Assembly (NCBI GenBank): GCA_021604005.1
Contig: BQIV01000039.1
Coordinates: 1-39,125, forward strand
Reading direction: 5' to 3'
From: Nitrospirales bacterium
Lineage (GTDB): Bacteria; Nitrospirota; Nitrospiria; Nitrospirales; UBA8639
DNA length: 39,125 nucleotides
Part shown: positions 27,146 to 36,757 of the stretch, one piece after another
Numbering within the stretch: the first letter of the stretch is position 1
Layout: each line of letters opens with the position of its first letter
Translations under genes and position numbers: made by a program
Notes under the pieces: generated by a model
Seen by the model: only the letters and a program-made list of their open reading frames with translations
What the model was told of the DNA's origin: nothing
Database searches by the model: none

Positions 27146-27159
27146 TTGCAAGACTCGGT

Positions 27160-27235
27160 GGGTCGTTAGCTCAGCTGGTAGAGCAGCTGACTCTTAATCA
27201 GCGGGCCACAGGTTCGATCCCTGTACGACCCACCA
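27160..27235 (+). tRNA. tRNA-Lys (anticodon CTT), integration target
   Basis: A 76-nt cloverleaf. The acceptor GGGTCGT pairs with ACGACCC, the anticodon stem is GCTGA/TCAGC around loop CTCTTAA, the T-arm contains GGTTCGATCC, and CCA is encoded. Its 3' half (27195-27236) is repeated exactly at 27955-27996, so it has served as an attachment site. The gene itself is intact. Confidence 0.95.
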
Positions 27236-27236
27236 T
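27195..27236 (+). repeat. Attachment-site repeat 1 (inside tRNA-Lys)
   Basis: A 42-bp segment from TAATCAGCGGGCC through CGACCCACCAT is identical to 27955-27996, 760 bp downstream. It covers the anticodon-arm 3' strand, variable loop, T-arm and acceptor 3' strand plus CCA. This is the usual crossover segment for tyrosine integrases acting on tRNA genes. Confidence 0.85.
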
Positions 27237-27294
27237 CTTTATTCGGAATCATTAAAATTCATAATCGAAGTTATTGGGCCGCTAGGAAAATGTA

Positions 27295-27573
27295 GTGACA
27301 TTTGAATGGGATTCGGCCAAAGCTTCCGCCAATCTTCGAAAGCATAAAGTATCATTTACTGAGGCTGCTTCCGTTTTTCTTGATCCTCTAGCTTTGACAT
27401 TCGACGACCCCGACCATTCCGGAGAGGAAAACCGTGAAATCACCATCGGAATCTCCAATAAAGAACGGACTCTATTTGTCTCGCATTGTTTGCGCAGTGA
27501 GCGTCTTCGGATAATTAGTGCTCGAAGGGCAACTAAAAGGGAGAAAATACAGTATGGCGAAACGATCGGATGA
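27295..27573 (+). CDS. brnT: BrnT-family ribonuclease toxin
   Basis: This 92-residue protein has the BrnT pattern from end to end: FEWDSAKASANLRKHKVSF, AASVFLDPLALTFDDPDH, then ITIGISNKERTLFVSHC and IRIISARRATKREKIQY. BrnT is a RelE-like RNase toxin neutralised by BrnA. The start is GTG, and the FEWD...A..N...H segment needs this start. It overlaps the start of its antitoxin by 20 bp, a normal coupling for this system. The gene lies 60 bp after tRNA-Lys, inside the 760-bp segment bounded by the 42-bp repeats. It is full length for the family. Confidence 0.92.
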   Translation: MTFEWDSAKASANLRKHKVSFTEAASVFLDPLALTFDDPDHSGEENREITIGISNKERTLFVSHCLRSERLRIISARRATKREKIQYGETIG

Positions 27574-27847
27574 TGAAATGCGAGCCGAATATGATGACTT
27601 TACTCAATTAAAGGGTGCTGTCAGAGGGAAGTACTACTCAAAAGCGAAAGCAGGCACGAATCTCGTACTTATCGACCCCGATCTTGCCAAGGTATTTCCC
27701 AACGACGAGTCCGTCAATCGAGCACTTCGACTATTACTTGAGACTGCCACTGATGCGACCGGAAAATCTCCGCGATCTCGTAAAAGGGTCAAGAATTCGC
27801 AAAAGACCAGCCATAAGAAACCAACTCGCATGACCACAAGTCGTTAA
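27554..27847 (+). CDS. brnA: BrnA-type antitoxin
   Basis: This 97-residue protein starts MAKRSDDEMRAEYDDFTQLK. The segment GAVRGKYYSKAKAGTNLVLI followed by DPDLAKVFPNDESVNRALRLLL is typical of the ribbon-helix-helix-type antitoxins paired with BrnT. The C-terminal 25 residues are Lys/Arg/Ser/Thr-rich, possibly disordered. It overlaps the end of brnT by 20 bp. As in known pairs it probably represses its own promoter. The ATG at 27554 is chosen because AGGGAG lies a few bases upstream. Confidence 0.87.
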   Translation: MAKRSDDEMRAEYDDFTQLKGAVRGKYYSKAKAGTNLVLIDPDLAKVFPNDESVNRALRLLLETATDATGKSPRSRKRVKNSQKTSHKKPTRMTTSR

Positions 27848-27924
27848 ATATGTAGCTGACTCCTATGGCCGAGCTAGTAAACATCAGGTGCCTGGTGTGG
27901 TGTATCACGCTGTGCCAGGTAGAG

Positions 27925-27971
27925 GGCTCAGCAAGGCACTACTTGGGTTCGCCATAATCAGCGGGCCACAG
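27925..27971 (+). repeat. Module right-end repeat, copy 1 (element sequence plus att core)
   Basis: This 47-bp segment (from GGCTCAGCAAGGCACTACTT to GCGGGCCACAG) aligns without gaps to 32453-32499 at about 38 of 47 positions. Its first 30 bp are not tRNA sequence, so the similarity extends beyond the attachment core into what should be element-specific DNA. Confidence 0.55.
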
Positions 27972-27996
27972 GTTCGATCCCTGTACGACCCACCAT
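27955..27996 (+). repeat. Attachment-site repeat 2 (tRNA-Lys 3' fragment)
   Basis: This is an exact 42-bp copy of 27195-27236. It lacks the 5' half and cannot form a tRNA. It marks the right boundary of the BrnTA module and the left boundary of the next one. Confidence 0.85.
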
Positions 27997-28042
27997 ATTT
28001 TTCAAGCACTTACGCGTGCCCCGCCGCTAGCCCCTTTTCCAC

Positions 28043-28303: not shown

Positions 28304-29501
28304 ATGGATAAAAGCCCACTAGACACTGCACTCAGACATTTTGGGGCAACTGAAGCCAATCTTTTAAAACTGGAAAAGTTATGGAAGGAAATAAGGGAGT
28401 CCATTCCTGACGGCATTTCTTTTTACTCTGGCGAAAGCCCAGATTTCGATGACAAGTGCAGAAATTTTGATGAACTCTTGGAAGCAATTCCTAAAATTGA
28501 TGGATGGAAACCAGAAATTCATTTAATGGACTTGGATGCAATTGCTCAAAATAGGTTGGACGCTCAAGATGTAGGCGAGGTGAATTGCCTTGTTAGCGTG
28601 GAGCAGGAAATTAACGAACCGGGAAGGATATTGAGAGAATACCGTTTTCGATTTAACAAGAAGCGAAGGGAGCTCATCAAAGATTCGCTCATTGAACTGA
28701 TAAATATAATTGATAGTGACCTTCGTGAAATTTCAAAGGTACTTCAAATGGAAGCGGAAAGTAATAAAGCTTTTGCAGGTCCAAGATTTGGGGATCTAAA
28801 AAAAACATTTCGCTCAAATTGACATTCTTTTAGGGAGCAGCGTTTCACGACCACCAAGATGGTCTGATATGGCTCGGCACATACACTTTGGTCTAGTAGC
28901 TGATTTGCGGGATATCGTTGATCATGACTGGCCTTCAATCAAGCCAGGACTTCGTAAATTTCTCTATGGTGAAAGTGACCCTGTGCCTGTGGGAGTAGAA
29001 GATCTTTCGTTACTTGTTTCAAGCAAACCTCACGGCCCAATAACAACAAAGCTAGATTGGGAACGCCTTTCAGCAGAAGAGTTTGAAAGACTAATCTTTA
29101 CATTAATTTCCTCTGAAAAAGGATATGAAGACCCGGAATGGTTAACGAAGACTAATGCTCCTGATCGTGGAAGAGATCTTTCAGTATACCGTGTATATAC
29201 TGACCCTTTAGGAGGGACTCTGAGGCAGCGTGTGATTATTCAATGTAAGCACTGGCTAAGTAAGAGCGTAGGACCAGGGGAAGTTACTTTATCTAAGGAG
29301 CAAATGAAATTGTGGGAACCACCCAGGGTTGAAATTCATATTATCGGTACTACAGGGCGATTTACTTCAGATGCAATCGATCTAGTTGAAAAACACAACC
29401 AATCCGATAGTGCTTTGACTATTGAAATGTGGCCAGAGAGCCGGCTTGAGCGTTTACTGGCCAGTAGGCCAGCAATAATTGCAGAATTTAAACTGAGATA
29501 A
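28304..29501 (+). pseudogene. Mrr-like restriction endonuclease gene, split by a one-base shift at an A8 run
   Basis: Two frames, 28304-28822 (172 residues) and 28869-29501 (210 residues), fit one protein of about 398 residues if one A is removed from the A8 run at 28798-28805. Reading then goes from GDLKK into HFAQIDILLGSSVSRPPRW, DMARHIHFGLVADLRDIVDH and on to the nuclease. The second frame stays open back to 28800, with no ribosome site before its first ATG. The N-terminal part is helical and unknown. The C-terminal part has the Mrr-type PD-(D/E)xK site: RGRDL (Asp103 of the second frame) and IIQCKHW (Gln125-x-Lys127), with EEFERLI before it. This predicts a DNA nuclease. The shift may be a mutation, a sequencing error, phase variation or slippage. 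The region is AT-richer than the core. Confidence 0.65.
28798..28805 (+). other. A8 homopolymer at the reading-frame break
   Basis: Eight consecutive A occur exactly where the two nuclease frames meet. Seven would restore one frame (CTA AAA AAA CAT). Such a run is prone to slippage by polymerases, and to sequencing error. Confidence 0.7.
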
Positions 29502-29678: not shown

Positions 29679-31068
29679 GAGCTATTATCAAATGTAGTGT
29701 CTGAGTCGTTGATTACGCGGCGACAGGGTCTTGCATGGTTTCCTCGATTCCATCGATAAACTGAATTTCGCTGATCACTTGTGCGAGCTGGCGAAACCCG
29801 CGAAGTCGGCGCCAGGTCTTTTCTGCACACCGGCCGAGCTTGAACATCATGTGCAGCATACTATCTCGCGTCAGAGAGCCGTTGGTCTGCTTCGTCCGAT
29901 GGCGAATGGTCCCAAACGTCAATTCAATCGGATTCGTGGTCCGCAGACTCTGCCAATGGGGGGCCGGAAACGCGTAGAACGTGAGCAGTTCCTCCCGATC
30001 TTTCTCTAAGCACGCGGTGGCTTTCGGGTACTTGGCTTCGTAGGTTTTCAGAAACACGTCGAATGCTCGGTCGGCTGCGCCTTTGGTCTCGGCTTGCCAA
30101 ATCTCGTGCAAGGCTTGCTTCGCTTTGGGCTGCACGCTCTTCGGTAATGCATTGAGCACGTTACGGGTCTTGTGCACCCAACAGCGTTGCTGGCGGGTGG
30201 TGGGATAGATTTCCTCCAAGGCTCCCCAAAAGCCCAACGCTCCATCGCCAATCGCCAAAGCTGGGGCATTCCTTCCTCGGGCTTTCAGATAAAGCAGCAC
30301 TTCTCGCCAACTCTGCGTCGACTCGCGCACGCCGTCGTCAATGGCCAAGAGCTGTTTCTCTCCTTTGCTCGTGACTCCAATCACAACCAATGCACACAAC
30401 CGGGGTCTCTCCCCTCGGAGCCCACTGTAAATGCCATCACTCCAGATATACACCCAGTCCTCTTCATCCAATTGGCATTGCCGCCAGGTGTGGTACTCGT
30501 CCCGCCAGGTCTGTTTCAAGCGGGCTACGGTACTGGCGGAGAGGCCCTTGGCCTCAGAACCCACTAAGGCTTCTCGGGCAGTCTGCATCTCCCCCGTCGA
30601 GATCCCTTTTCAATACAACCACGGTATCGCGGCTTCGAGGCTGGCCGTCTTGCGCACATAGGGTGGCACGAGCGTAGAACGGAAGGAGACCGGCTTCCCC
30701 TGCCGACTCCGGACTTTGGGGACCTGAACCGTCACAGGACCAATCCTGGTCTGAATCTCCCGTTCGGGTTGGTGCCCATTGCGAACGACCACGGCCCGGC
30801 CCGGCTCATCCCGTTCTTCTGCATACATCTCGAGTAACTCGGCCACTTCGGCTTCTAGCGCTTGTGTCAACAATTTCCTGGCACCCACGCGGAGTACTTC
30901 AGTCAACGTATCTCCCTTCGCTCGCTCTTCGGCCTCTGGTTTGGTACGCTTGCTCATCGTGGCGTCTCTCCTTTCATGGTTGAGCTGTGGATGTGTGGTA
31001 ACACCCATTTCAACCCGAGACGCCGCGTCTTTTCAACTCTCTTCAGACACCACTTTCGAATATAGCTC
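29679..31068 (-). mobile_element. IS256-family insertion sequence, about 1.39 kb
   Basis: The left end GAGCTATTATCAAATGTAGT followed by GTCTGA and the right end, read on the minus strand, GAGCTATATTCGAAAGTGGT followed by GTCTGA match at 21 of 26 positions. They enclose one transposase gene. Flanking 8-bp sequences (GTTATAGC on the left, CAAACATT on the right) do not match. No target duplication is visible, and one side may have rearranged. The transposase carries a nonsense codon. Confidence 0.7.
29713..30957 (-). pseudogene. IS256-family transposase with one in-frame TGA
   Basis: Translation from the ATG at 30957, preceded by AAGGAG, gives a typical IS256 N-terminus (LTEVLRVGARKLLTQALEAE, VVRNGHQPEREIQTRIGPV) up to PWLY. 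A TGA at 30612-30610 interrupts it, where homologues read PWLYLKGIS. The same frame continues as KGISTGEMQTAREALVGSEA through to 29713. The catalytic region shows WSDGIYSGLRG and IGDGALGFWGAL, giving the two Asp residues, and TTNPIELTFGTIRHRTK, giving the Glu. The total length of about 414 codons equals an intact IS256 transposase. A single base change from a Leu codon to TGA explains the break, so the element is recently inactivated unless readthrough occurs. Confidence 0.85.
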
Positions 31069-31120
31069 CAAACATTTATGTTTAACTATTGTCCAGTGTG
31101 GAAGGAGGGTCTTTTATCTA

Positions 31121-31615
31121 ATGAGTAATTTAAAAATGAAGCTTGTAATTGCATTGTTCTCTATGTCTCTCTTTGGCTGTATTACTCCCTACAAATCTGT
31201 GACAACAGGATCACGTGCCAAAGTCACGCTGATGTCACATCAGAGTAAAATGTTATTTTCTGTATTTAAACCGGAAGCCGACGCCAATACTGGCCGCTGT
31301 CGTTCTCGGGAACTCGGTACTGTCAAAATCGCGCACGGAGAAAAAAATAAGTCCGTTTTTCTCCCTGCCGGTTCGAGGATAAATATTGGCCTCGCGATCT
31401 TCCACGAACCAGAGTTATTTAGGTCTTATGGCACATCCTCGGAGATGTTTTCGTTTGTCCCTCAAGAAAACTGGGAGTACCAAATCGAGTACATTGATCT
31501 CGGTTACGACCTTGAAGCATCAAGTAAGAACTTTAACCTTGAGTATTGGGAATACACCGAGCGAGGAAAGAAGAATGAGTGGGAAATTGAATATATAAAA
31601 GGGTGTGGAAACTAA
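31121..31615 (+). CDS. Putative lipoprotein, paralogue A
   Basis: This 164-residue protein has a signal peptide with lipobox (MKLVIALFSMSLFGC; Cys near residue 20). The mature part is a mixed-beta polar domain of unknown family (SRAKVTLMSHQSKMLFSVFK, KSVFLPAGSRINIGLAIFHE, SFVPQENWEYQIEYIDLGYD). GGAAGGAGG lies 12-18 bases before this ATG. The ATG at 31136 is an alternative with more usual leader length. It shares order and motifs with the following gene: (A/P)Y.SV......RAKV near the start, FVPA or FLPAG....N/V in the middle, and EN(W/Y)EY.IE.ID toward the end. The two are probably tandem duplicates and possibly co-transcribed. The gene begins 53 bp after the IS256 end, so its native promoter may have been replaced. 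Confidence 0.7.
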   Translation: MSNLKMKLVIALFSMSLFGCITPYKSVTTGSRAKVTLMSHQSKMLFSVFKPEADANTGRCRSRELGTVKIAHGEKNKSVFLPAGSRINIGLAIFHEPELFRSYGTSSEMFSFVPQENWEYQIEYIDLGYDLEASSKNFNLEYWEYTERGKKNEWEIEYIKGCGN

Positions 31616-31634
31616 ACATAATATTTACAAGTAT

Positions 31635-32141
31635 ATGAAGTATAAAGCACTGCTAGTAAGTGTTCTGCTCTTGTGTGCCTCTTTCGCAGGATGCCTAAAG
31701 ATTCCCGTTCCGGCTTATCAGTCCGTGATAGATGCCCCAAGAGCTAAAGTAATTTTTTCTTCTCCACAATTGCACGGGGCAAGTTTCGGAGTCATCCTCG
31801 AGTTATATATCTATGACCATAGTCCAGAGTGTGCATTTACTCCCAAAGGACGTGTCGCACTCACCTTGAAGGATCCAACAAAAACTGTGTTTGTCCCAGC
31901 AAATACGCGGGTATACTTCCGAGTTGCACATCTCCGACAAAATATGCCAAGGAGTGCCAGCACGCACAAGAAAGACTTTTCCTATGTCCTCAAGGAAAAC
32001 TATGAGTATACGATTGAGCATATAGATAACCGTCCTAACAAACTTACACTGAATTTCTTTGAATCAGATGGAGTATATCCAAAGCACCCTTTAGAGGTTC
32101 AGCCAGTCATATGTCATGCCGAGAAGCCAAACTCCAGGTGA
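31635..32141 (+). CDS. Putative lipoprotein, paralogue B
   Basis: This 168-residue protein has a lipobox signal peptide (MKYKALLVSVLLLCASFAGC; Cys20). The mature domain is related to the preceding lipoprotein: VPAYQSVIDAPRAKVIFSS, KTVFVPANTRVYFRVAHLRQ, SYVLKENYEYTIEHIDNRPN. No known family is recognised. The ribosome site is weak for this ATG. A GTG at 31605 would overlap the previous gene by 11 bp and add ten residues, but it would give an atypical leader. Two cysteines remain in the mature part (PECAFTP, VICHAEK). An envelope role is inferred from lipidation only. Confidence 0.68.
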   Translation: MKYKALLVSVLLLCASFAGCLKIPVPAYQSVIDAPRAKVIFSSPQLHGASFGVILELYIYDHSPECAFTPKGRVALTLKDPTKTVFVPANTRVYFRVAHLRQNMPRSASTHKKDFSYVLKENYEYTIEHIDNRPNKLTLNFFESDGVYPKHPLEVQPVICHAEKPNSR

Positions 32142-32620: not shown

Positions 32621-32623
32621 GTG

Positions 32624-33472
32624 ATGCCTTTCTTAAAGAACCTCCATCTAACCACCGAAATAATCTACAGAAGTCTATCTCGAACCCTAGCTCGTGAAGG
32701 GTCTCTCGTGAATCGTGAAGCATATCTCGAAACAGATGGATCTCGTCGTCCGTTGTTCGTGAAATATTGCCTGGGCAACAAGCCTACTGGCCTTTCTTTT
32801 TCGAGATACCAGATTCGAGAGACAAACCACGGGTTTACTCTGATCGAAATGATCGGGGTGTTGGCGGTGATTGCGATTCTCGTGGCGCTGTTGCTTCCCA
32901 AGGTGTTTGAGATCATAGCGGAATCCAAAGCCAATTCCTTGGTCGCGGCCGTCAGGACGTATGAGACGGCCATCGTGGATTATTATGCTGATATTGGATC
33001 CATCCTTCCACTGGATGTGGGAGGTACTCCAGTTGTTGAACAAGGTGGCGATAGTGCGAATCCCCTATCATTGCCCGCCCGTCTTACCTTGGATAAATCT
33101 GACCCCTTGAACACAGAAACCAATAGTTGGGTGAAATTCAATGGGCCTTATTTAGTGAAATTTTCAACAAATTCTCCTCCGGGATTGGGCTCCGCGGTGC
33201 AAATGAAAACTCGAACCCCCAACCCATATGGAACGGCAACGAACGCAAGCAATGGGACCTACGACTTTAATAATGATGGAAACAGTGACATTCCAACGAA
33301 TGCGTATCTTGCATTCCTACGTATTACAGATGTTGGTCTAAAAGACTTTGAAAGAGTTGATAACATTCTTGACCGAGGTATTGGAGCGACGCCCACAGAA
33401 CGCCAGCTTCGCGGTCGAGTGAAATATAACACGGGATCAAATGTGATGCGGATCTACCTCATGCATAAGTAA
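32624..33472 (+). CDS. Type IV prepilin-like / pseudopilin protein, start uncertain
   Basis: The segment HGFTLIEMIGVLAVIAILVA (cleavage between Gly and Phe, with Glu at position 5 of the mature form) is the type III signal of type IV pilins and pseudopilins. The mature protein of about 212 residues has one N-terminal hydrophobic helix and a C-terminal globular domain rich in Asn, Thr and Gly (NGTYDFNNDGNSDIPTNAYL). The frame is open from 32621, giving a leader of some 70 residues. That leader overlaps intergenic repeat DNA, so a later start is likely. GTG at 32759 would give a 25-residue leader. No other pilus gene is nearby, so it is an orphan that would depend on a prepilin peptidase elsewhere. 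It may be functional or a stranded relic. Confidence 0.75.
   Translation: MPFLKNLHLTTEIIYRSLSRTLAREGSLVNREAYLETDGSRRPLFVKYCLGNKPTGLSFSRYQIRETNHGFTLIEMIGVLAVIAILVALLLPKVFEIIAESKANSLVAAVRTYETAIVDYYADIGSILPLDVGGTPVVEQGGDSANPLSLPARLTLDKSDPLNTETNSWVKFNGPYLVKFSTNSPPGLGSAVQMKTRTPNPYGTATNASNGTYDFNNDGNSDIPTNAYLAFLRITDVGLKDFERVDNILDRGIGATPTERQLRGRVKYNTGSNVMRIYLMHK
32690..32770. repeat. CGTGAAGCATATCTCG repeat overlapping the prepilin 5' region
   Basis: CTCGTGAAGGGTCTCTCGTG, AATCGTGAAGCATATCTCGA and TTCGTGAAATAT are variants of the CGTGAAGCGTATCTCG family seen at 23787 and 27060. They fall within the open frame before the prepilin signal. That suggests the coding sequence starts downstream, or that the repeat has replaced the original 5' end. 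Confidence 0.45.
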
Positions 33473-34032: not shown

Positions 34033-34329
34033 TTGGGAGAGGAGAAACAGAGGCCATATCATGTTGATAGGGTCCTTGAAACTGTTATCATGTTCCGACA
34101 AATACAGCAATTTCCTCAAGAGTTACAACGCGCTGCACGAAGGAAATTATTGTACTTACATGAAGCAGCCGAGTTGAAAGATTTGCGTGTTCCTCCTAGT
34201 AACAGGCTAGAAGCACTCAAAGGAACTTCGAAAGGACTGTCTTCTATTCGAATTAATGATCAATGGCGTGTGGTATTTCAGTGGGAGGGAGGAAATGCGA
34301 GTCATGGACAGATTGTGGATTATCACTGA
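34033..34329 (+). CDS. higB: HigB-family (RelE-type) mRNA interferase toxin
   Basis: The C-terminal two thirds match HigB closely: RAARRKLLYLHEAAELKDLR, VPPSNRLEALKGTSKGLSSI, then RINDQWRVVFQW and the end IVDYH. The family cleaves mRNA on the ribosome. The N-terminal 30 residues (MGEEKQRPYHVDRVLETVIM) do not resemble the usual SF..K..E.FF start, and the first codon is TTG. An ATG at 34090 would shorten the protein to 79 residues. The N-terminus may have been altered. higA follows after 24 bp, the normal toxin-first order of this pair. Confidence 0.85.
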   Translation: MGEEKQRPYHVDRVLETVIMFRQIQQFPQELQRAARRKLLYLHEAAELKDLRVPPSNRLEALKGTSKGLSSIRINDQWRVVFQWEGGNASHGQIVDYH

Positions 34330-34353
34330 ATACTCAGTGAACGGAGGAAACGT

Positions 34354-34611
34354 ATGAAGCAACCCCAAAATCCATTTCATCCTGGAGAGATGCTGCTAGA
34401 AGAATTTCTTGAGCCCGCAGGTATCAATCAATCCCAATTTGCTCATAAACTGGGGTGGACCCGCACCCGGCTCAACGAGCTCATTAAGGGCAAACGAGGG
34501 ATTACCGCCGATTCGGCGTTAGATCTTGCCAAGGCATTGGGGACTTCCGCCAAGCTGTGGATGAATCTCCAGGTCACATACGACCTTGCCCAAGCTGCAA
34601 AGCTTCGCTAA
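34354..34611 (+). CDS. higA: HigA-family antitoxin (XRE helix-turn-helix)
   Basis: This 85-residue protein begins NPFHPGEMLLEEFLEPAGIN, a HigA hallmark. Its helix-turn-helix (QSQFAHKLGWTRTRLNELIK, then GKRGITADSALDLAKALGTS) is followed by KLWMNLQVTYDLAQA. HigA binds HigB and represses the operon. CGGAGG lies before the ATG. The length is a little short of typical HigA (about 100 residues), but all core parts are there. Confidence 0.92.
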   Translation: MKQPQNPFHPGEMLLEEFLEPAGINQSQFAHKLGWTRTRLNELIKGKRGITADSALDLAKALGTSAKLWMNLQVTYDLAQAAKLR

Positions 34612-34741
34612 ACAGCTTACTTAATGAATTGATGATTAGAGATATAGCTTGCACGTCTATCTTTCAAGAGACAGAGCACAATCCTGAATCAGATAAAAGA
34701 ACTCCTCTTAATGTTAAACAAGTCAGAACGGAGAATTTAGC

Positions 34742-34909
34742 GTGAAACAATCCCATGTGAATCTTAAGAAAGTATCTCAACACCAAGCCAGGACCTTAGC
34801 TGGATCATTGAGTGTTTATGCTAAAGAAATGCACTCGAATAAAAATATCCGAGAGAACATAAAACGGAAGGTGGCTGTTGCCGCAGCCAAAGAAGCCACG
34901 TCTCATTGA
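34742..34909 (+). CDS. Small protein, possible antitoxin of a decayed PIN-type pair
   Basis: This 55-residue frame starts at GTG. It is basic and helical (VNLKKVSQHQARTLAGSLSV, IRENIKRKVAVAAAKEATSH). I do not recognise a family. Its end overlaps a frame reading RLIDTNVLLLLV, which resembles a PIN-toxin N-terminus. That is the arrangement of an antitoxin-toxin operon. Alone it would not be called, and the context gives it modest support. Confidence 0.35.
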   Translation: MKQSHVNLKKVSQHQARTLAGSLSVYAKEMHSNKNIRENIKRKVAVAAAKEATSH

Positions 34910-34952
34910 TACGAATGTTCTTCTTCTGGTCAATGAAAGATGTGATCCCTAA
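34878..34952 (+). pseudogene. Possible PIN-domain toxin remnant (N-terminal 24 residues)
   Basis: From a TTG at 34878 the frame reads MPQPKKPRLIDTNVLLLLVN followed by ERCDP and a stop. (L)IDTN.LLLL is the first strand and first acidic residue of PIN nucleases. The rest of the domain (about 100 residues) is absent, because the 477-residue gene's 3' end begins 24 bp later on the other strand. This is suggestive only. Confidence 0.3.
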
Positions 34953-34975
34953 CCAGACCCTCTCTCCTCAACCAT

Positions 34976-36409
34976 CTAGTTATTCTTTGGCCCTCCTCCA
35001 CCCCCTTGTTGGTTAATATTGAAGTACTGGGTGACTGAATTGATGCTGCTCGGAGTACTTTCTCCCGTAGCAGGACAGTGTATACACGGAAAAGTCCTTT
35101 GGCTTTGGGTTGGAGGGCCTGCTGGCAACACAATAAACTGCCCGGGAGCCACATGCTCGCTAAAAGCAGGTACTCGAGCGAACGTAGGAGGATTACCGCA
35201 CTCACATTTGCCACCAACCTTGGGAGCCGTTCGGTAAAAAGTTCGAGAGAAGGTTTCTATTCTCACCATCCTATCACCTGGTTTCCCCGGCACCTCCTCC
35301 ATAGGCCCTATTACAGTATCCCGTCGCGTCCAAGCACAGCAACAAGCGTTCTTTTCTTCGGTGATCTCCTTGTTGATAAGTGTAAGATCCACTGTATGCT
35401 TTATCACGACTCCAACCGCGTAGATGTCTAGAGCAACACCAACCGGAACGAGGGCTTTGCCAAGAACTTTCAGTGCAGCTTTCTTCGCAATCTTCTTGAC
35501 GACGCCATTCACCGCACCTTTCACGACCTTTTTTCCTGTCTTCGTAACTGTCTTGGCCCCGGTCTTGCCGGCACCGCCTAGCAACCGAGGCGCGCCAGGC
35601 GGGCGGACCGGTTTAGGCATGGTTTTTGGCGGTGGTGACAGGGCCGTTCCACCCGAGGTGATTATTTCACGAGACTCGAGAGGACGGGGAAGTGCAGGCA
35701 AAACTGGCTTGCCAGAGATAGATAGCTCTTCGGGCTCGAGAGGAGCAATTCCCTCTGCGTAAGTAAAGAGGCTTGGAAGTGGCCCATCGACACGAGCGTA
35801 GTAGAGACCCAAGCCCTCAGATAGGAAACCCTCGGCTTCGGCGATTGTCAGATAGTACCCTGGGCGGAGGTTCGCCAACGCTGAGCAACCTTCTCTGGCA
35901 GACTCAATACCATTAACAGTAACCAGAGCATCATTCGGCGACGTCGTTATTTCCAGTCTCGCTGGCAAGTCAACATACTCAGAATCAAGAAGCAAACGTT
36001 CCCGCCACGTCTCGAGATCCCACTCCAACGCTTCGCCAATTTCGCGCGAGTACGTGTTTTCATAAACTACGTCGCTTGCGACAGAGAACTTCTCTCTTTC
36101 ATCGAGACCGTGTGCGTGAACGGCAAGAATACATTCTTCGGCTCCACTGGGGAAACATTGCACAGAGACGCTATACTGCGTTTTGTTTTCATCACCCGGC
36201 GTACGAAACGACAGAGACAAACCCTCGAAATCCACCGTCGCGTCTCCGTCCCATTCTGCCAATGCAACCGCAGTCCAAAATACGTCCGAGGCGGACCTCG
36301 ACAAAGGCGTTTCCGTATATCGGTACTGGTATTGAGCTGAGTTCGGGAAGTTTTCGAAGTCAAACTCATTGTGCGGTTCAGGCAACGTGTTGTGTTCTTC
36401 TTTAGCCAT
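34976..36409 (-). CDS. Unusual 477-residue PEGA-like protein with hydrophobic basic core and Cys-rich C-terminus
   Basis: The protein has no signal peptide. Residues 1-150 are an unknown soluble domain (YQYRYTETPLSRSASDVFWT, VALAEWDGDATVDFEGLSL). About 150-205 resembles a PEGA domain (ARLEITTSPNDALVTVNGIE, LANLRPGYYLTIAEAEGFLS). A Pro-rich linker follows (about 230-275). Next is a Gly/Lys/Val-rich segment (about 276-340: GAGKTGAKTVTKTGKKVVKG, then VVKKIAKKAALKVLGKALVP and VGVALDIYAVGVVIKHTVDL) like the amphipathic or transmembrane stretches of polymorphic-toxin proteins. The end has three cysteine clusters (CCCAW, GGKCECGN, FPCIHCPAT) and a Gly-rich tail. GAGGAGG precedes the ATG. No immunity-like gene is obvious beside it. 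Effector or toxin identity is inference. I know no matching family. Confidence 0.75.
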   Translation of the reverse strand: MAKEEHNTLPEPHNEFDFENFPNSAQYQYRYTETPLSRSASDVFWTAVALAEWDGDATVDFEGLSLSFRTPGDENKTQYSVSVQCFPSGAEECILAVHAHGLDEREKFSVASDVVYENTYSREIGEALEWDLETWRERLLLDSEYVDLPARLEITTSPNDALVTVNGIESAREGCSALANLRPGYYLTIAEAEGFLSEGLGLYYARVDGPLPSLFTYAEGIAPLEPEELSISGKPVLPALPRPLESREIITSGGTALSPPPKTMPKPVRPPGAPRLLGGAGKTGAKTVTKTGKKVVKGAVNGVVKKIAKKAALKVLGKALVPVGVALDIYAVGVVIKHTVDLTLINKEITEEKNACCCAWTRRDTVIGPMEEVPGKPGDRMVRIETFSRTFYRTAPKVGGKCECGNPPTFARVPAFSEHVAPGQFIVLPAGPPTQSQRTFPCIHCPATGESTPSSINSVTQYFNINQQGGGGGPKNN

Positions 36410-36757
36410 GGTAACCTCCTCTACGCCTGTTAATAGTTTGGGGATATGGCGCTGGGGAGTCCCTATGCCTTCGAACGTTCGGCTGCACTAACAATCCTGT
36501 TCATAGAAGCGTGAAGCATCGGGATTCTCCTTCTTCCCAGCTAGTGGTTTGGCCTATAGCATGCATGGTTGTTTAGGACATCCATACCAAATTTGGCCTA
36601 CTCATTATCTGTAACTTAATACGAAGAAAGAGAGGAGAATGGATTCTTTGAAGGGAATTCCTCTTTAGAAATGCCGGAAACGGGGATAGATGGCAGCTAG
36701 TAGCAGTCAGGGCCAAATCTACTTTATTTACAATTATTGCTGGTAGACCTCTGAGGC
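36410..36757. other. Gene-free stretch upstream of the 477-residue gene and first Y1 transposase relic
   Basis: I see no supported gene. The end contains AGGGCCAAATCTACTTTATT (36707-36726), the leader word that also precedes the second Y1 transposase relic. Promoter elements for the minus-strand gene should lie here, but none is clear. Confidence 0.4.

What the first reader, a model, noticed from the sequence alone, without database searches (positions are those of the whole stretch)
34976..36409. Uncharacterised PEGA plus hydrophobic-basic plus Cys-rich protein in the accessory region
The domain order is unlike any family I know. It has a soluble N-domain, a PEGA-like module, a Pro linker, a Gly/Lys/Val amphipathic stretch, three Cys clusters (CCC, CEC, CIHC) and a Gly-rich tail, and no signal peptide. 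The amphipathic stretch recalls pre-toxin or pore segments of polymorphic toxins, and the cysteines could bind metal. It is intact with a strong ribosome site amid decayed genes, which suggests selection.
Basis: partly seen in the sequence, partly recalled or inferred. Interest (0 to 1): 0.62.

Follow-up and report, generated by a model that had tools for sequence, protein, structure and literature searches.

The report
Orphan multi-part protein, possibly effector-like
This is a real, intact 477-residue gene in a worn-out accessory stretch of a bacterial chromosome whose protein resembles nothing in the databases searched; its build loosely recalls injected toxins, but every test that could have tied it to a toxin system came back negative or inconclusive.

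Summary
The reading frame at 34976-36409 (-) is real. It is open for 503 codons, against at most 236 in 300 simulated sequences, and has an AGAGGAGG ribosome site. The listed modules are present: a soluble N-domain, a weak PEGA-like module (12.1 bits, below Pfam's cut-off), a Pro linker, a +12 basic stretch, a hydrophobic segment (residues 318-338), three Cys clusters and a Gly tail. There is no signal peptide.

It is an orphan. Pfam, NCBIfam, PHROGs, PADLOC, PDB sequences, phages, plasmids, IMG/VR, GTDB contigs, four other species of its genus, 269 genomes of its class and two samples of about 395 of its phylum gave no relative. AlphaFold2 without relatives fails (pLDDT 39 and 48).

The toxin reading is not established. 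The genome has no T6SS sheath or PAAR protein, and no immunity-like gene follows the ORF. It does encode a complete-looking eCIS with two DUF4157 proteins, but on another contig, and this ORF lacks most eCIS-effector marks. Codon usage is neutral, so selection is not shown. Best reading (0.35): an orphan accessory protein of effector-like build. A non-toxic membrane-associated protein is nearly as likely. Interest is low to moderate.

The parts
34976..36409 (-). orphan ORF, 477 aa
   Evidence: open frame, codon score, length against simulations
36415..36422 (-). AGAGGAGG ribosome-binding site, 5 nt before the ATG
   Evidence: read directly from the sequence
35969..36367 (-). N-terminal soluble domain, residues ~15-147; alpha-beta pattern inferred by eye
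   Evidence: no Pfam match; no relative in 395 phylum genomes
35810..35959 (-). PEGA-like module, residues ~151-200
   Evidence: PF08308 12.1 bits, sub-threshold; 11.2 bits in the six-frame genome search
35585..35728 (-). proline-rich linker, residues ~228-275
   Evidence: sequence
35456..35578 (-). Lys/Gly/Val-rich basic stretch, residues 278-318 (strongly amphipathic only in ~285-306)
   Evidence: net charge +12 over residues 280-322; helical moment 0.59 falling to 0.2
35396..35458 (-). hydrophobic segment, residues 318-338
   Evidence: Kyte-Doolittle mean 1.9 over 19 residues
35075..35344 (-). Cys-rich region, residues 356-445 (CCC, CEC, CIHC); two-strand hairpin in weak models
   Evidence: P about 2e-6 for Cys density; local pLDDT about 60-70
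34979..35005 (-). Gly-rich tail, residues 469-477
   Evidence: sequence
34755..34975 (+). remnant of an antitoxin-PIN toxin pair, truncated beside the ORF's 3' end
   Evidence: 77% DNA identity to relatives; fuller copies in L064 and L068; frames of the remnant

Best explanation
A genus- or strain-restricted orphan gene in an accessory region, encoding a single-gene protein of effector-like build. Shown: a real intact ORF; no relatives in the collections searched; a sub-threshold PEGA-like module; a basic then hydrophobic segment; dense cysteines; no Sec signal. Inferred: the N-domain and PEGA-like module form a soluble carrier part, the proline linker is flexible, the basic/hydrophobic segment engages a membrane, and the cysteines of the C-terminal hairpin hold a small metal- or disulfide-stabilised active or binding module. 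On this reading the C-terminal part is the cargo and the protein acts on another cell or on the membrane. Delivery route and target are not established.
For: Module order soluble / linker / basic-hydrophobic / small Cys-rich C-terminus, no Sec signal. Orphan status with patchy presence: absent from four other species of the genus. Accessory surroundings with toxin-antitoxin and transposon remains. The genome has an eCIS with DUF4157 proteins, so a delivery machine exists. The C-terminal 125 residues have codon usage that differs from the rest in direction (z -1.55 against +0.6 to +1.4), weakly compatible with a separately acquired C-terminal module.
Against: No T6SS sheath or PAAR; no immunity-like ORF downstream; no known toxin, pre-toxin or trafficking domain; not linked to the eCIS cluster and without DUF4157; no confident fold.
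Confidence: 0.35

Rival explanations
1. A non-toxic accessory protein anchored in the inner membrane by residues 318-338. The positive-inside rule (basic stretch before, acidic NKEITEE after) would put the N-domain and PEGA-like module in the cytoplasm and the cysteines outside, as disulfides.
For: Hydrophobic 19-mer at 1.9 with +12 before it; no immunity gene; no toxin domain.
Against: Asp and Pro lie inside the hydrophobic segment; PEGA was described from cell-surface proteins (PMC2447325), which fits poorly with a cytoplasmic PEGA; an orphan without relatives gives no function.
Confidence: 0.3
2. An effector loaded into the eCIS encoded on contig C6 of the same genome.
For: eCIS sheath, tube, spike, baseplate and AAA ATPase genes present; hydrophilic N-terminus; no Sec signal.
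Against: Different contig, while known eCIS toxins lie almost entirely within ten genes of the last core gene (PMC11297309); no DUF4157 (it is in two C6 proteins instead); no aromatic residue in the first eight and net charge -4 over residues 6-21, whereas the confirmed Pdp1 signal described there has two aromatics in its first eight residues and a positive N-terminal charge.
Confidence: 0.07
3. A composite or decaying ORF without function, kept open by chance in a gene graveyard.
For: No relatives found; neutral synonymous codon usage overall (z 0.6) and z -1.55 in the C-terminal quarter; surrounded by decayed genes.
Against: 503 open codons against at most 236 simulated; strong ribosome site; best codon score of the six frames over the whole ORF; clear modular composition. 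Intact accessory genes nearby also have neutral codon usage.
Confidence: 0.13

Closest known systems
PEGA domain (Pfam PF08308)
   Same: Residues ~154-197 match profile positions 4-46 in order, including the ITTSP...VTVNG...LRPGYY...AEGF pattern
   Different: 12.1 bits against a 20.8-bit cut-off; embedded in a protein without signal peptide
Polymorphic toxins (PMC3482391)
   Same: Long soluble N-part, hydrophobic segment before a small C-terminal module, accessory location
   Different: No recognised trafficking, pre-toxin or toxin domain; no immunity gene; no T6SS or PAAR in the genome
eCIS-associated toxins (PMC11297309)
   Same: Genome has an eCIS; hydrophilic N-terminus; no Sec signal
   Different: Unlinked to the cluster; no DUF4157; no aromatic and net negative N-terminus

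Membership tests
PEGA domain (PF08308) | profile score above the curated cut-off | tested here: not met
   12.1 bits against 20.8; right order and extent, p about 8e-6 as a single hypothesis, so PEGA-like only
Polymorphic toxin | recognised N-terminal trafficking or pre-toxin domain | tested here: not met
   no family in Pfam, NCBIfam, PADLOC or PHROGs
Polymorphic toxin | immunity gene next to the toxin gene | tested here: not met
   no ORF of note downstream on the minus strand, 34500-34975
Polymorphic toxin | toxic C-terminal activity | not testable with these tools
   needs an expression assay
T6SS effector | T6SS in the genome | tested here: not met
   no VipB sheath, no PAAR
eCIS-associated toxin | eCIS in the same genome | tested here: met
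   contig C6, 14940-31119, plus DUF4157 proteins
eCIS-associated toxin | within about ten genes of the eCIS core | tested here: not met
   ORF is on contig C39
eCIS-associated toxin | DUF4157 domain (common, not universal) | tested here: not met
   only C6 proteins exceed the cut-off
eCIS-associated toxin | hydrophilic, aromatic, positively charged N-terminus | tested here: inconclusive
   hydrophilic, but no aromatic in the first eight and charge -4 over 6-21; the published classifier itself was not run
Metal-binding Cys module | cysteine pairs brought together by the fold | tested here: inconclusive
   hairpin between CCC and CEC at pLDDT about 60-70 only; no alignment

The most novel reading that the evidence does not exclude
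A new family of delivered effector, with a soluble alpha-beta plus PEGA-like carrier, a membrane-active basic/hydrophobic segment and a new Cys-rich C-terminal activity, used without a dedicated immunity gene and therefore aimed at cells other than kin.
Probability: 0.12. Interest if true: 0.55.

Novelty: new variant of a known kind. Interest (0 to 1): 0.25.

Why it matters
If it is an effector, it would be a new carrier-cargo layout in a genome that has an eCIS but no T6SS. If it is not, it is an example of how orphan genes in accessory regions resemble toxin architectures by composition alone, which matters for toxin prediction.

Tried and rejected
Relatives were sought by tblastn in plasmids and phages, by peptide patterns in GTDB contigs and IMG/VR, and by whole-genome searches in genus, class and phylum. 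One search lists 79 genomes at E<=0.1 for the C-terminal part, but the best apart from itself is 1.1e-4 in one of 395 genomes with stops inside, and the matches scatter over unrelated frames: rejected as chance. The Leptolyngbya plasmid protein has a similar length by coincidence and aligns over 84 residues at 26% without the CCC or CEC clusters: rejected. PDB hits to Mog proteins (E 0.02-0.4) and Pfam hits to Ski7 domain II, Pyr_redox_dim and SasG_E are taken as low-complexity or chance. Fold searches were not run because both models are of low confidence (pLDDT 39 and 48). A frameshift inside the C-terminal part was considered; the other two frames contain stops there, although frame +1 is open from about residue 382 onwards, so it is not fully excluded. 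T6SS delivery rejected.

Full report
The ORF. The minus-strand frame 34976-36409 encodes 477 residues from ATG, with AGAGGAGG five bases upstream. Its 503 open codons exceed every one of 300 first-order simulations of the region (maximum 236), and over the whole ORF its frame scores best of six by codon log-likelihood from the window's core genes. Synonymous codon choice alone is neutral (z 0.6; C-terminal quarter -1.55), similar to several neighbouring accessory genes and unlike a core gene (z 7.3, though that gene was in the training set). So the gene is real or was recently real, and not adapted to this host.

The modules. The PEGA-like module is the only one with profile support: 12.1 bits to PF08308 over positions 4-46, below the cut-off, and 11.2 bits in the whole-genome scan, where two matches over the cut-off score 48 and 34. 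As a single hypothesis the p-value is about 8e-6. The stretch 280-322 carries +12; the helical moment is high only at its start (0.59 at residue 285) and the following residues 318-338 are hydrophobic (mean 1.9). Seven cysteines in residues 356-445 are an enrichment (P about 2e-6 for that stretch). There is no signal peptide.

Relatives. None found. Family libraries. PDB sequences. Plasmids and phages. GTDB contigs and IMG/VR by peptide pattern. Whole genomes: four other species of the genus, 269 genomes of the class, about 395 of the phylum with the C-terminal part and with the N-terminal part. At DNA level, no genome of the 48 in the family matched any of 34976-36409, whereas the flanks on both sides did match. 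The pattern searches need exact short peptides and would miss distant relatives, and metagenome collections could not be scanned, so 'orphan' means orphan in what was searched.

Structure. AlphaFold2 without relatives gives pLDDT 39 for the whole and 48 for residues 316-460. Both models show a two-strand hairpin running from CCC to near CEC at local pLDDT about 60-70, which would bring those clusters together, but this is too weak to claim a metal site.

Context. The ORF lies in a variable, decayed stretch: Mrr-like nuclease, split IS256-type transposase, lipoprotein-like pair, pseudopilin-like gene, HigBA-like pair, then an antitoxin-PIN pair cut off within the PIN gene next to the ORF's 3' end, and a truncated IS200-like transposase upstream. 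No immunity-like ORF follows the gene.

Delivery. The genome has neither a T6SS sheath nor a PAAR protein (the controls rang in E. coli). It does have a sheath-family protein (5.9e-7, just under the curated cut-off) inside a cluster on contig C6 that reads as an eCIS: tube, spike, baseplate, AAA ATPase (identified by reading the translations, not by profile), with two strong DUF4157 proteins beside it. Published eCIS toxins lie almost entirely within ten genes of the core and commonly carry DUF4157, and the N-terminal signal described for Pdp1 is hydrophilic, aromatic and positively charged (PMC11297309). This ORF is on contig C39, lacks DUF4157, has no aromatic in its first eight residues and charge -4 over residues 6-21; only the hydrophilicity fits.

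Verdict. My recollection that basic-hydrophobic segments followed by Cys clusters are common before the tips of polymorphic toxins is a lead from memory, not a test. I give 0.35 to an effector-like protein, 0.30 to a membrane-associated non-toxic accessory protein, 0.13 to a non-functional composite ORF and 0.07 to an eCIS effector in particular.

Noticed in passing
genome contig C6:9353-31119 (L076, L078, L079): Apparently complete eCIS cluster with two DUF4157 proteins (open frames of 456 and 1339 aa) in the window's own genome.
   Followed up: partly
window 27154-28000: tRNA-Lys 3' end is repeated at 27955-28000, enclosing a ~720-bp cassette with a small ORF (27555-27848); the cassette is shared by two other species of the genus and lacking in a third (G001): looks like a tRNA-targeted insertion.
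   Followed up: partly
window 34033-34611: Intact-looking HigB/HigA toxin-antitoxin pair next to the decayed antitoxin-PIN pair.
   Followed up: no
window 30779-32141: Two adjacent lipoprotein-like ORFs that look like paralogues, without Pfam match; the first overlaps IS256-type transposase DNA at its 5' end.
   Followed up: no
window 32621-33472: Pseudopilin-like protein with N-methylation motif about 69 residues in; the true start is probably downstream of the listed one.
   Followed up: no
window 28869-29501: Mrr-type nuclease domain protein matching PADLOC PDC-M58A, paired with an uncharacterised 172-aa ORF (28304-28822): possible defence pair.
   Followed up: no
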